Below, piece by piece: positions 18,894-40,585 of a stretch of 41,815 nucleotides of DNA. Made by a program: the position numbers and the translations under genes. The notes under the pieces are model-generated. The model had not been told where the DNA came from. It searched no databases and saw nothing but the letters and a program-made list of their open reading frames with translations. The stretch is from Candidatus Parcubacteria bacterium (GTDB lineage: Bacteria; Patescibacteriota; Patescibacteriia; Magasanikbacterales; UBA922). Position 1 is the stretch's first letter. The number at the start of each line of letters is the position of its first letter. The stretch is taken from the NCBI GenBank assembly GCA_002869205.1, contig PKTJ01000020.1, forward strand, positions 1 through 41,815. Direction: 5' to 3'.

Positions 18894-19517
18894 ATGAGCG
18901 AGATGAAGAAGGGTCTGGTCGCCGAAAACGTGGACGACCTCAGAGGTCTGCTCGAGGGCGAGAAGAAGTTCAAGCTCGTCATCGTAGAGAGAAACAAGGA
19001 GAGTGACTTCGGTGCTCTCAGCGGTCCCATCATCTTCCGGGAGGATGAGGACGGGGAGTACATGAGCGTGTTCCCGAAGCTTTCTCCGTCTCCGTTCCGA
19101 TTCCACATCGGCGAAGGACTCCTGTTCGAGGAGCAGACGGATGGAAGTCTCCACTTCACGCACACCGACTACAAGTGGCGGCTCATTCGCCTGGATGTCT
19201 CTCGGAAGGTTTCCGAGCACGACAAGGGGGTTTCCGAGCTGCTTCTTCACCGGCGGTTCCACCTCGAGGTGATCCATCAGCCCGTCGGCACCGTCGACAA
19301 GTACGACGTGAGTGGCGAAGTCTGGATCGCGGGTCAGCTGATCTCGACCCACATCTCGATCCCCACTACCGCTCATCAGATGCCCTTCGCGCTCTACCTG
19401 CGAGGGTCCGGCGAGCTCGGAGACCTCTTCTTCGAGGAGAACGAGTACGGCGGCATCACGTTCTACTACGCGAGCAAGCGGCACGTCTACGAGCTCGTTC
19501 GCGTCAACACCTACTAG
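18894..19517 (+). CDS. GC-rich orphan protein, unknown function (island 1)
   Basis: 207-aa ORF, strong G/C third-position bias unlike neighbours. Confidence 0.8.
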   Translation: MSEMKKGLVAENVDDLRGLLEGEKKFKLVIVERNKESDFGALSGPIIFREDEDGEYMSVFPKLSPSPFRFHIGEGLLFEEQTDGSLHFTHTDYKWRLIRLDVSRKVSEHDKGVSELLLHRRFHLEVIHQPVGTVDKYDVSGEVWIAGQLISTHISIPTTAHQMPFALYLRGSGELGDLFFEENEYGGITFYYASKRHVYELVRVNTY

Positions 19518-19525
19518 GGGGAGAA

Positions 19526-19549
19526 ATGAACAACATTAGAGCGCCGTGA
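19526..19549 (+). CDS. mini-ORF MNNIRAP (tail module copy A)
   Basis: GGGGGAG SD, ATGAACAACATTAGAGCGCCGTGA; matches two other mini-ORFs in window. Confidence 0.55.
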   Translation: MNNIRAP

Positions 19550-19579
19550 GGGAAGCGGCGAAAAACAAGTTCCCTTCCC
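19542..19579 (+). ncRNA. predicted H-type pseudoknot (tail module copy A)
   Basis: CGCCG/CGGCG stem; loop AGGGAA or GGGAAG pairs with TTCCCT or CTTCCC after A-rich linker. Confidence 0.6.
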
Positions 19580-19620
19580 AAATATCTTTTTTACTTAAAG
19601 TAGAAAAAATTGAGGAATAA

Positions 19621-19650
19621 AAAACCACCAAAGTAGGTGGTTTTTTATTT
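19621..19650 (+). terminator. terminator of GC-rich island 1 (may be bidirectional)
   Basis: AAAACCACC aaagta GGTGGTTTTTT. Confidence 0.8.
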
Positions 19651-19652
19651 GT

Positions 19653-19721
19653 TCGCGGACAGGGATTCGAACCCCGATAGCCAGTACCAAAAACTGGAGT
19701 CCTACCATTAGACGATCCGCG
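19653..19721 (-). tRNA. tRNA-Gln (TTG)
   Basis: Reverse complement CGCGGATCGTCTAATGGTAGGAC..CCAGTTTTTGGTACTGG..GGTTCGAATCC..GTCCGCG. Confidence 0.88.
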
Positions 19722-19929
19722 ATTAACCTTCGCCAAGGCTACGGCTGACAAGTTATTTTATACCAATATTTTGTGATATAACTTGTCCACCGAAACTTTA
19801 GTGTAGGTGGAGACGATCCGCGAATAAGACGATAATATGATACTATATATAATATGATTTGTCAATATAATTGCCCACATTGAATGGTCTATATTGAAAT
19901 GGTATACTCCTGAATATAATAAAATTTCT

Positions 19930-31839: not shown

Positions 31840-31893
31840 TACTTGTCGCCTTTGGAGCGACTGATCACAATTTCTTCATTTTGGAGAAGCGGT

Positions 31894-32118
31894 ATGCCGA
31901 AAGTCATCGTCGTCAAGGGGCGTGATTGCCCCAATTGCAAGATCCCAAGAGGGACGACCGACGGGACAGACTTCGTCTGCCCGACCTGTGAAGGAGACTT
32001 CTGCTCGCAGTGCTTCACCTCGCCCAATGACGGCGACGGTAGTGAGATCATCTGCCCGCTCTGCGGACAGCTGCTCGACCTGCCGGAACCCAGCGTCATC
32101 ACCCCGCGGCAGGACTAG
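31894..32118 (+). CDS. GC-rich small zinc-ribbon protein (island 4)
   Basis: CPNC, CPTC, CSQC, CPLC motifs; ATG 31894 preceded by GGAG, preferred over TTG start of track. Confidence 0.8.
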   Translation: MPKVIVVKGRDCPNCKIPRGTTDGTDFVCPTCEGDFCSQCFTSPNDGDGSEIICPLCGQLLDLPEPSVITPRQD

Positions 32119-32177
32119 CGCCTGGGTTTTCAAGGATCCGTCCTGTAATGGGGTGGTAAGTGACAAGGAGGATCGCG

Positions 32178-32201
32178 ATGATTACTATTCGCGGACCGTG
32201 A
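32178..32201 (+). CDS. mini-ORF MITIRGP (tail module copy B)
   Basis: AAGGAGGA SD; ATGATTACTATTCGCGGACCGTGA. Confidence 0.55.
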   Translation: MITIRGP

Positions 32202-32228
32202 AGGGGAGCACGGTAAAAAACACCCCTT
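32195..32228 (+). ncRNA. predicted H-type pseudoknot (tail module copy B)
   Basis: ACCGTG/CACGGT stem; loop AAGGGG pairs perfectly with CCCCTT after AAAAAACA linker. Confidence 0.7.
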
Positions 32229-32265
32229 CCGATTATCATATTAAATTATTGAGATAATTGAGGAT

Positions 32266-32296
32266 AAAAAAGCCCCACAGATCTGGGGCTTTTTTA
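32266..32296 (+). terminator. terminator of GC-rich island 4
   Basis: AAAAAAGCCCC acagatct GGGGCTTTTTT. Confidence 0.88.
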
Positions 32297-32354
32297 TTGT
32301 CTAGTATTATATTTTTTGTTATAATATCCCCATCAATACAATCTATCGATGTAG

Positions 32355-39013: not shown

Positions 39014-39044
39014 ATTTTTTTTGATAGTTAACAGGGGATAGTAT

Positions 39045-39105
39045 AGCAGGAAAAAAGGTATTTGTAATTAGGCTTTTGCCTTGACAAATGCCTTTTTTTG
39101 TGATA
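39045..39105 (+). repeat. 61-bp promoter-containing direct repeat, copy 1
   Basis: Identical to 40525-40585; contains TTGACA and an inverted repeat. Confidence 0.95.
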
Positions 39106-39222: not shown

Positions 39223-40320
39223 ATGAGAAAACCGATGAAATTCCACGTGATCAACACGGGCGGGACGCTCGGCATGGTCGGCAAGCCGCTTGTGCCGGCG
39301 GCATCCGCTGAAGAGCTCCTCGAAGGCATCAAGGTGCCCAAGGGAGTCAAGCTGAACCTCCAGGACATGGATGAGAAGCAGGATTCCACCAACGTGTGGA
39401 ACGCGGATCGTCTGGTCATGGGTCAGATGATCGAGGCGGCGTACGAGACGCACGACGCCTTCATCGTCCTGCACGGCACGGACTCGCTTGCCGAGACCTG
39501 CTCCTACCTCTCGATGCTCTTCAAGCTGTCCCTGCAGAAGCCGGTCTTCGTGATCGGCGCGCAGATGACGAAGATCGAGGCAGGTAGCGACGTGGCGATG
39601 CAGATCGAGAACGCGCTGCGCGTTGCGAAGTCCTTCGTCAAGAACAGCATCGTCGGCGTGTACAACGTTTGCATCGGCGAGGTGCTCCACGGCGCGCGGG
39701 TGTGTAAGCGTCGCGACAGCGCCTTCGACGCCTTCCACACCCCCGGTGTGCATCCCGTCGCCCACGCCTTCCCTCACATCATGATCAAGGAGGGGGTCCG
39801 GCGCAAGGACGAGGTCACCGCGGTGCAGGGTCTGCGCCTCGATTCCAAGTTCGAGCGCCACGTGGTCTCGCTCGTCGTGTCCGCCGACGCTCCGCCCTAT
39901 GTCCTCATGGACATGGTCAAGGCCGGGCGGATTCGTGGCGTCGTACTCGAATGCAAGGGAGCGGGGAATATCCCTGACCGTCCTTGGGAAACCGAAGGTG
40001 ACGACGCCTTCTCTTGGATCGACGCGATCCGGGCCGCGACCGATGCTGGTATCCACGTGGGTATCGTCTCGCCGTTCGAGGACGGTCGAGTCATCCTCGA
40101 TCGCTACGGGCTGGGTGCCAAGGCCAAGGCCGCCGGCGCTCTCTCGCTCGAGAGCATGACGCCGCCCATGGCCGACACCAAGTTCCGGCAGGCCATCGCG
40201 ATGTTCCCGAAGGATCCGGCGCGCATCCAGCGCTTCCTCTCGGCGGACATGCTCAACGAGCTCCTCGACGGATTCGAGGATGAGAGCGACGAAGACGACG
40301 ACGAGGTCGTGAAGGACTGA
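39223..40320 (+). CDS. GC-rich asparaginase-family protein (island 5)
   Basis: NTGGTLGM and LHGTDSLAETCSYLS catalytic motifs. Confidence 0.88.
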   Translation: MRKPMKFHVINTGGTLGMVGKPLVPAASAEELLEGIKVPKGVKLNLQDMDEKQDSTNVWNADRLVMGQMIEAAYETHDAFIVLHGTDSLAETCSYLSMLFKLSLQKPVFVIGAQMTKIEAGSDVAMQIENALRVAKSFVKNSIVGVYNVCIGEVLHGARVCKRRDSAFDAFHTPGVHPVAHAFPHIMIKEGVRRKDEVTAVQGLRLDSKFERHVVSLVVSADAPPYVLMDMVKAGRIRGVVLECKGAGNIPDRPWETEGDDAFSWIDAIRAATDAGIHVGIVSPFEDGRVILDRYGLGAKAKAAGALSLESMTPPMADTKFRQAIAMFPKDPARIQRFLSADMLNELLDGFEDESDEDDDEVVKD

Positions 40321-40366
40321 TCCGATCACAGTACGGCCTCTGACGACAACATCAAGGAGAACCACG

Positions 40367-40393
40367 ATGAATACGATTCGTGCGCCCTGTTAA
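40367..40393 (+). CDS. mini-ORF MNTIRAPC (tail module copy C)
   Basis: AAGGAGA SD; ATGAATACGATTCGTGCGCCCTGTTAA. Confidence 0.55.
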   Translation: MNTIRAPC

Positions 40394-40401
40394 ATCAGGG
40401 C

Positions 40402-40433
40402 CGCTGTCCGGGGGCAGCGTTATCAAAACCCCC
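40402..40433 (+). ncRNA. predicted H-type pseudoknot (tail module copy C)
   Basis: CGCTG/CAGCG stem; loop GGGGG pairs with CCCCC after TTATCAAAA linker. Confidence 0.65.
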
Positions 40434-40473
40434 TTCGATTATCATTTTTATAACATAGAAATGATTGAGAAAT

Positions 40474-40501
40474 AAAAACTGCTTTTAAAAGCAGTTTTTA
40501 T
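40474..40501 (+). terminator. terminator of GC-rich island 5
   Basis: AAAAACTGC ttttaaaa GCAGTTTTT. Confidence 0.85.
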
Positions 40502-40524
40502 TTTGTGGATTCTAGGGGTGATAC

Positions 40525-40585
40525 AGCAGGAAAAAAGGTATTTGTAATTAGGCTTTTGCCTTGACAAATGCCTTTTTTTGTGATA
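40525..40585 (+). repeat. 61-bp promoter-containing direct repeat, copy 2
   Basis: Identical to 39045-39105. Confidence 0.95.

What the first reader, a model, noticed from the sequence alone, without database searches (positions are those of the whole stretch)
32165..32297. Shared 3' module behind unrelated GC-rich genes: mini-ORF, pseudoknot, hairpin, conserved box and terminator (best copy, B)
After the zinc-ribbon gene the order is: AAGGAGGA SD; mini-ORF MITIRGP* (32178-32201); stem ACCGTG/CACGGT whose loop AAGGGG pairs perfectly with CCCCTT across an A-rich linker (H-type pseudoknot); ATTATC/GATAAT hairpin; box ATTGAGGATAAAAA; then a strong terminator. The same ordered parts follow two unrelated GC-rich genes (19526-19650 and 40367-40501). 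Stem sequences differ between copies while pairing is kept, which is compensatory change and suggests selected RNA structure. The mini-ORF stop lies inside the first stem, so a translating ribosome and the pseudoknot cannot coexist. I recognise no described element with this layout. Candidate roles: ribosome-sensing control of the adjacent terminator, 3'-end protection of the mRNA, release of a stable small RNA, or a cassette recombination or replication tag.
Basis: partly seen in the sequence, partly recalled or inferred. Interest (0 to 1): 0.9.

Follow-up and report, generated by a model that had tools for sequence, protein, structure and literature searches.

The report
Shared RNA end-piece on GC-rich cassettes
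In a group of ultra-small uncultured bacteria (Magasanikbacteria and relatives), many unrelated GC-rich genes that sit as isolated insertions end in the same undescribed RNA double hairpin, which probably finishes and protects their messages; the mini-gene and pseudoknot seen in this genome are a local addition to that wider module.

Summary
Three copies sit behind unrelated GC-rich genes, each with a Shine-Dalgarno-like sequence, a 7-8 codon ORF (MNNIRAP, MITIRGP, MNTIRAPC), a plausible H-type pseudoknot with compensatory stems, a hairpin and a terminator. No Rfam family reaches threshold. The reading needs correcting. The exact mini-ORF pattern occurs only in this genome: none in 191 relatives, none in 84,980 species with the box pattern added. 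What is conserved is the distal half: an A/U-rich hairpin (H1, usually with a U.U mismatch) joined to a symmetric A-tract/T-tract terminator (T). Filled and empty intergenic sites show these cassettes are gained or lost as units. Best explanation: an undescribed composite 3'-end module (GC stem or pseudoknot + H1 + terminator) that ends, insulates and protects mRNAs of moron-like GC-rich cassettes. The R-(A/G)-P mini-ORF might pause ribosomes, but that is unproven and local.

The parts
18894..19517 (+). GC-rich host gene of copy A (207 aa, no Pfam/NCBIfam match, GC3 0.82)
19526..19549 (+). mini-ORF A, MNNIRAP*, preceded by GGGGGAG (19517-19523)
19542..19576 (+). pseudoknot A: S1 19542-19547/19555-19560, S2 19548-19554/19570-19576
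   Evidence: 0/500 shuffles
19578..19623 (+). H1 hairpin and start of terminator arm, copy A (model R2 match, 58.2 bits)
19615..19650 (+). symmetric intrinsic terminator A; convergent tRNA-Gln begins at 19651
31888..32118 (+). GC-rich zinc-ribbon-like gene of copy B (76 aa)
32165..32171 (+). Shine-Dalgarno-like AAGGAGG of mini-ORF B
32178..32201 (+). mini-ORF B, MITIRGP*
32195..32228 (+). pseudoknot B: S1 32195-32200/32209-32214, S2 32201-32206/32223-32228
   Evidence: 1/500 shuffles
32229..32271 (+). H1 hairpin (32233-32260) and start of terminator arm, copy B (R2 54.4 bits)
32263..32298 (+). symmetric intrinsic terminator B
39223..40320 (+). GC-rich asparaginase-family gene of copy C (GC3 0.85); orthologues with H1 modules in G022 and G031
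40367..40393 (+). mini-ORF C, MNTIRAPC*, preceded by AAGGAG (40354-40359)
40384..40401 (+). extra hairpin found only in copy C (GCCCTG/CAGGGC)
40402..40433 (+). pseudoknot C: S1 40402-40406/40415-40419, S2 40410-40414/40429-40433
   Evidence: 9/500 shuffles
40435..40478 (+). H1 hairpin and start of terminator arm, copy C (R2 65.2 bits)
40472..40501 (+). symmetric intrinsic terminator C

Best explanation
This is a composite mRNA 3'-end module that ends autonomous, moron-like GC-rich gene cassettes in Magasanikbacteria and related ABY1 Patescibacteria. Its general order after the stop codon is: a GC-rich stem (here a pseudoknot) with a pyrimidine-rich 3' arm; the conserved A/U hairpin H1; a 3-nt AGR linker; and a symmetric A-tract/T-tract intrinsic terminator T. 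Most likely mechanism: T releases the transcript and can stop convergent transcription. H1 lies 3 nt from T and forms with it a double hairpin at the mature 3' end. Together with the GC stem or pseudoknot it blocks 3' exonucleases, and its conserved bases probably serve as a docking site for a lineage-specific RNA-binding protein or processing nuclease. Shown: the structure, covariation, strand and position. Inferred: termination and protection. Guessed: the docking protein. In this genome only, a 7-8 codon ORF ending in R-(A/G)-P overlaps (A, B) or precedes (C) the pseudoknot. A ribosome on its last codons in A and B would exclude S1. Whether this tunes the 3' end is untested.
For: R2 finds H1-T in 30/86 genomes of the order at E<=0.02. 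It also finds two convincing homologues in other orders of the class (L179, L180). A pattern scan of 84,980 species gives 12 hits, of which 8 are titled Magasanikbacteria and 1 'Patescibacteria group'. Covariation on 38 distinct sequences: 92.8% of cells paired, 42 cells changed on both sides against 10.9 in shuffles, 8 of 11 pairs with a change on both sides, score 0.367 against 0.183, 0/500 shuffles. G.U 52 cells versus A.C 4 cells puts the selection on the transcribed strand. Upstream GC exceeds local background in 34 of 36 loci with a background value (mean 0.56 vs 0.41, Wilcoxon p 2.8e-7), and GC islands end at H1. The terminator stem includes the AAYAAAAA arm in the folds. Filled and empty intergenic sites and promoter-like TTGACA sequences before the genes support a cassette unit.
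Against: No RNA-seq, decay or protein-binding data exist, so termination and 3' protection are inferred from structure. Only 3 of about 27 GC-rich islands sampled in the own genome carry H1, so the module is not required for such cassettes. A few modules (G029/G039) follow genes that are only mildly GC-rich. A simple regex for the variable pair in the terminator arm found a standard pair in 24 of 38 modules, with 5 unmatched.
Confidence: 0.5

Rival explanations
1. Ribosome-sensing element: translation of the mini-ORF stalls at R-(A/G)-P-stop, as RAPP-class and TnaC peptides do, and the parked ribosome blocks the pseudoknot, changing termination or decay at the 3' end.
For: All three peptides end in R-(A/G)-P, or R-A-P-C in copy C; RAPP and RGPP are the strongest described arrest cores (PMC12992588). 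Pro in the P-site with UGA in the A-site is the TnaC arrest state (PMC8429421), as A and B would have. Differences among the three ORFs sit mainly at third codon positions (2, 6 and 12 summed over pairs), and Arg is kept with three codons. SD-like motifs are enriched in modules: 16/34 vs 4.3 expected, 0/300 shuffles.
Against: The mini-ORF pattern is absent from all relatives and, with the box, from 84,980 species. The A-site codon is a stop or Cys, not Pro, and the peptides are only 7-8 residues. There is no downstream gene in the transcript. SD-like motifs elsewhere are mostly the purine arm of a stem, not followed by a similar ORF.
Confidence: 0.15
2. DNA-level exchange site: H1 (or the whole module) is a recombination or copying signal that moves GC-rich cassettes or their 3' ends, as attC sites do for integron cassettes.
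For: Cassette layout with exchangeable genes; tandem cassettes in G008 with similar 5' leader and 3' module around unlike ORFs. Modules are more alike within a genome, across unrelated genes, than between orthologous cassettes (p 2.7e-6). Two apparent excision scars end inside H1 (G037, G044).
Against: G.U/A.C asymmetry points to RNA on the transcribed strand. attC-like R-box pairs in only 1 of 38 modules. No recombinase was sought or seen. Exact insertion junctions could not be resolved because the genomes are too divergent.
Confidence: 0.15
3. The module releases a stable 3'-UTR-derived small RNA that acts in trans.
For: A compact structured 3' segment ending in an intrinsic terminator is the usual layout of 3'-UTR sRNAs (general knowledge).
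Against: No conserved unpaired seed region; conservation lies in the stem and the T arm; the loop of H1 varies in length and sequence, with a ~40-nt insertion in G041.
Confidence: 0.1
4. Only a lineage-specific terminator style inherited by copying, with no function beyond ordinary termination.
For: T is an ordinary intrinsic terminator; modules within a genome resemble each other.
Against: H1 is not needed for intrinsic termination, yet its bases and pairs are conserved across genera and in a 56% GC genome (L098).
Confidence: 0.1

Closest known systems
Rho-independent (intrinsic) terminator
   Same: T is a stable hairpin with a U-tract at the end of a transcription unit.
   Different: T has a long A-tract/T-tract extended stem and is preceded at 3 nt by the conserved hairpin H1 and usually a GC stem or pseudoknot; H1 covaries and stays next to T across genera.
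Phage 'morons' (autonomous extra genes)
   Same: Single genes of unlike composition with a promoter-like sequence and terminator, inserted between neighbours that are adjacent in relatives. Comparison from general knowledge.
   Different: The flanking genes seen here look chromosomal, islands are frequent in the genome, and some share a homologous 3' RNA module.
RAPP/RGPP-class arrest peptides (ApdA, ApdP, ApcA) and SecM
   Same: C-terminal R-(A/G)-P core (PMC12992588).
   Different: Only 7-8 residues, stop or Cys in the A-site instead of Pro/Gly, located downstream of the gene instead of upstream of a regulated gene; no stalling shown.
TnaC leader peptide
   Same: Short peptide ending Pro-UGA (A and B); [quoted passage not shown]
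   Different: No Trp/Asp/Ile sensor residues placed as in TnaC, no downstream operon, and C has Cys before a UAA stop.
Integron gene cassettes with attC
   Same: Gene followed by a structured 3' element; elements similar within a genome and different between genomes.
   Different: No R-box pairs (1/38), structure selected on the RNA strand, own promoter-like sequences, dispersed positions; no integrase seen.

Membership tests
Any Rfam 15 family | match at the family's gathering score | tested here: not met
   only tRNAs in the whole window; with permissive settings on copy B all matches lie far below gathering score
Intrinsic terminator | stable hairpin followed by a U-tract at the end of the transcription unit | tested here: met
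   folds of A, B, C
Intrinsic terminator | transcripts actually end there | not testable with these tools
   no RNA data
Moron-type cassette | own promoter-like sequence and own terminator | tested here: met
   TTGACA-type sequences before genes and T after them, read by eye
Moron-type cassette | composition unlike the neighbours | tested here: met
   GC 0.56 vs 0.41
Moron-type cassette | present between genes that are adjacent in relatives | tested here: met
   sites 1, 2 and 3
Moron-type cassette | resides in a prophage | not tested
   flanks seen are tRNA, M23 peptidase, Cu-ATPase and similar genes; phage genes were not searched for systematically
RAPP-class arrest peptide | R-A/G-P-P (or RAPG/RAGP) core | tested here: not met
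   core is R-(A/G)-P followed by stop or Cys
RAPP-class arrest peptide | causes ribosome stalling | not testable with these tools
   needs toe-printing
RAPP-class / TnaC leader | located upstream of a regulated gene in the same transcript | tested here: not met
   a strong terminator follows; tRNA-Gln on the other strand (A) or a gene beyond the terminator (B, C) comes next
Integron attC site | paired R boxes RYYYAAC ... GTTRRRY | tested here: not met
   1 of 38 modules
Integron attC site | structure selected on a single DNA strand and not on the RNA | tested here: not met
   G.U 52 vs A.C 4 cells favour RNA of the transcribed strand
Integron attC site | integron integrase in the genome | not tested
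   not searched
H-type pseudoknot RNAs (e.g. preQ1-type riboswitches) | match to a known pseudoknot family | tested here: not met

The most novel reading that the evidence does not exclude
The module marks a lineage-specific system of exchangeable gene cassettes: a common frame (promoter-leader in front, GC stem + H1 + terminator behind) into which unrelated GC-rich genes are swapped, with H1 acting as the signal, at the RNA or DNA level, by which the frame is copied or recombined.
Probability: 0.12. Interest if true: 0.85.

Novelty: new variant of a known kind. Interest (0 to 1): 0.55.

Why it matters
It adds an RNA structure with measurable covariation that has no Rfam entry, in a large bacterial lineage (Patescibacteria/CPR) whose RNA biology is almost unknown; no paper on it was found in the library searched. 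It also gives a sequence tag for part of a striking, apparently undescribed class of genes there: isolated, very GC-rich single genes in AT-rich, reduced genomes. If H1 binds a protein or nuclease, it offers an entry to mRNA 3'-end metabolism in bacteria with minimal gene sets. If it takes part in cassette exchange, it would explain how such reduced genomes keep gaining accessory genes.

Tried and rejected
Mini-ORF as the conserved core: pattern searches in 191 relatives, 84,980 species and IMG/VR gave nothing. Rfam: nothing near gathering score. Integron attC: R boxes absent. Cassette insertion linked to inversion of the neighbouring tRNA: suggested by tRNA-Cys in G032 versus G010/G034, but the opposite orientation also occurs in empty genomes G000, G001 and G015, so dropped. 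H1 U-run pairing with the T A-run as an antiterminator: not kept in copies with changed H1 (B, G039; by inspection). Viral origin: no H1 pattern match in IMG/VR. Exact insertion junctions: flanks too divergent to align. Literature on Magasanikbacteria RNA elements or cassettes: none found.

Full report
OBSERVATION. Each has a purine-rich Shine-Dalgarno-like stretch, an ATG-initiated short frame (MNNIRAP*, MITIRGP*, MNTIRAPC*), two interleaved complementary stems (H-type pseudoknot), a hairpin and a terminator. A simple pseudoknot score with fixed loop limits is matched by 0, 1 and 9 of 500 dinucleotide shuffles for A, B and C. The whole modules fold with z-scores of -4.7 to -5.8. S1 and S2 differ in sequence between copies and keep pairing. 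Among the mini-ORFs, differences sit mostly at third codon positions (2, 6, 12 at positions 1, 2, 3 summed over pairs), and Arg is kept as AGA, CGC and CGT, which hints at translation; three related copies are too few to prove it. Copy C differs: it has an extra hairpin and its stop codon is not in the pseudoknot stem.

WHAT IS CONSERVED. The exact mini-ORF pattern occurs only in this genome among 192 searched, the own genome included. Mini-ORF plus box occurs in none of 84,980 species and in no IMG/VR contig; records of the own genome may be left out of those collections. A covariance model of the three copies (R1) nevertheless hit other genomes of the family. Reading those hits showed that only the distal half is shared. 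A second model (R2, 44 positions, 11 pairs) of hairpin H1 plus the A-rich arm found 30 of 86 genomes of the order, mostly 1-3 copies each. It found four hits at E<=0.001 outside the order among 192 genomes of the class; two of these (L179, L180) sit behind GC-rich genes with the same architecture, the other two look like chance. An exact pattern scan of 84,980 species hit 12 contigs: eight titled Candidatus Magasanikbacteria and one 'Patescibacteria group'; of the other three, two are Flavobacteriia (Chishuiella, Flavobacterium) or Bacillota (Amphibacillus) and one is an unnamed bacterium, and none was followed up beyond a look at one locus. The Magasanikbacteria hits are independent assemblies, so this is not an assembly artefact.

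STRUCTURE OF H1-T. On 38 distinct sequences H1 is paired in 92.8% of cells. 42 cells show changes on both sides (10.9 in shuffles), 8 of 11 pairs have at least one change on both sides, and the covariation score is 0.367 against 0.183 (0 of 500 shuffles) and far above slid controls. A U.U mismatch next to the outer pair is kept in 30 of 38, and in 6 it is replaced by A-U. One genome (G041) carries a ~40-nt insertion in the loop with the stem intact. G.U wobbles (52 cells) far outnumber A.C mismatches (4), so selection acts on the transcribed strand as RNA. The alignment was fitted to the model, so these counts lean towards it; the first 16-sequence MAFFT alignment, which was not, gave the same picture.

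CONTEXT. Upstream sequence is GC-rich (mean 0.56) against local background (0.41), higher in 34 of 36 loci, and the island edge coincides with H1. The genes are unrelated: asparaginase family, zinc ribbon, 2-oxoglutarate-oxygenase-like, SGNH-hydrolase-like, RNase III-like and orphans (several of these names are my reading of the translations). Orthologous GC-rich genes in different genera stay GC-rich (asparaginase GC3 0.85 and 0.88 at 68.6% identity). Between the CDS and H1 there is nearly always a GC-rich stem whose 3' arm is a pyrimidine tract (by inspection); SD-like purine motifs are enriched there (16 of 34 modules, 4.3 expected). By eye, the asparaginase orthologue in G031 can form a short pseudoknot (CCGG c GAGGG caa CCGG ctaa CCCTC), not statistically tested.

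CASSETTES. Neighbour comparison gave filled and empty sites. Gene Y-cassette-gene Z in G034 and G010 is Y-Z in G032, and the site before Z has no GC island in G000 or G001. Z-cassette-W in G044 is Z-W in G032 and others. The G023 cassette is missing at the same place in the own genome. Two sites look like deletion scars that keep the 3' half of H1 and the terminator (G037, G044). Modules resemble each other within a genome more than between orthologous cassettes (for C against its G022 and G031 orthologues the scores are at background). Sampling 279 kb of the own genome found about 27 GC-rich islands, most followed by a strong GC hairpin and a terminator, but only three carry H1.

INTERPRETATION. 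The best-supported account is a composite 3'-end module for autonomous GC-rich cassettes: terminator plus conserved hairpin plus GC stem or pseudoknot, ending and protecting the mRNA and probably recognised by a lineage-specific RNA-binding factor. Structure, covariation, strand and position are shown; termination, protection and recognition are inferred. The mini-ORF ends in R-(A/G)-P, the core shared by RAPP/RGPP arrest peptides (PMC12992588), and in A and B it places Pro before UGA as in TnaC arrest (PMC8429421). Because it is confined to this genome and has no downstream target, I treat ribosome control as a minor possibility (0.15). A recombination role is about equally likely and rests on within-genome homogeneity and the two scars, against the strand asymmetry.

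NOVELTY. No Rfam family fits and no paper on such an element was found in the library searched, which lacks most subscription journals and all preprints. I rate it a new variant of a known kind (structured terminator/3'-UTR module), with interest raised by its link to a large, unexplained class of GC-rich cassettes.

Noticed in passing
window 18894-41800 and own-genome loci L159-L178: About 27 isolated GC-rich single-gene islands in 279 kb sampled (GC 0.54-0.62, GC3 mostly 0.6-0.9, against 0.39-0.40 genome GC), most with a strong GC hairpin behind the stop codon; most lack H1.
   Followed up: partly
window 39035-39105 and 40515-40585: A 71-bp promoter-containing region (TTGACA inside an inverted repeat) is duplicated at 94% identity in front of two consecutive GC-rich genes.
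   Followed up: no
L084 222-1039 (own contig C11 about 42037-42854): Two divergent GC-rich genes share a leader region containing an inverted repeat (ATTTTTAGCTA...TAGCTAAAAAT) between them.
   Followed up: no
L095 5975-8301 (genome G022): A GC-rich asparaginase cassette (GC3 0.88) is followed directly by an AT-rich asparaginase paralogue (GC3 0.29, 27.6% identical to the window protein).
   Followed up: no
L102 and L103 (genomes G039, G029): Near-identical 3' modules of another type (TGTCAC...GTGACCA stem + H1) repeated 1.0-2.4 kb apart behind different, only mildly GC-rich genes; MITE-like spread.
   Followed up: partly
window 19651-19722 vs L100 8227-8298: tRNA-Gln lies at the corresponding place behind orthologous genes but in opposite orientation in G003.
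   Followed up: partly
modules of 34 loci, 110 nt before H1: SD-like purine motifs (AAGGAG, AGGAGG) are over-represented in these 3' UTRs, usually as the 5' arm of a stem with a pyrimidine-rich partner.
   Followed up: partly
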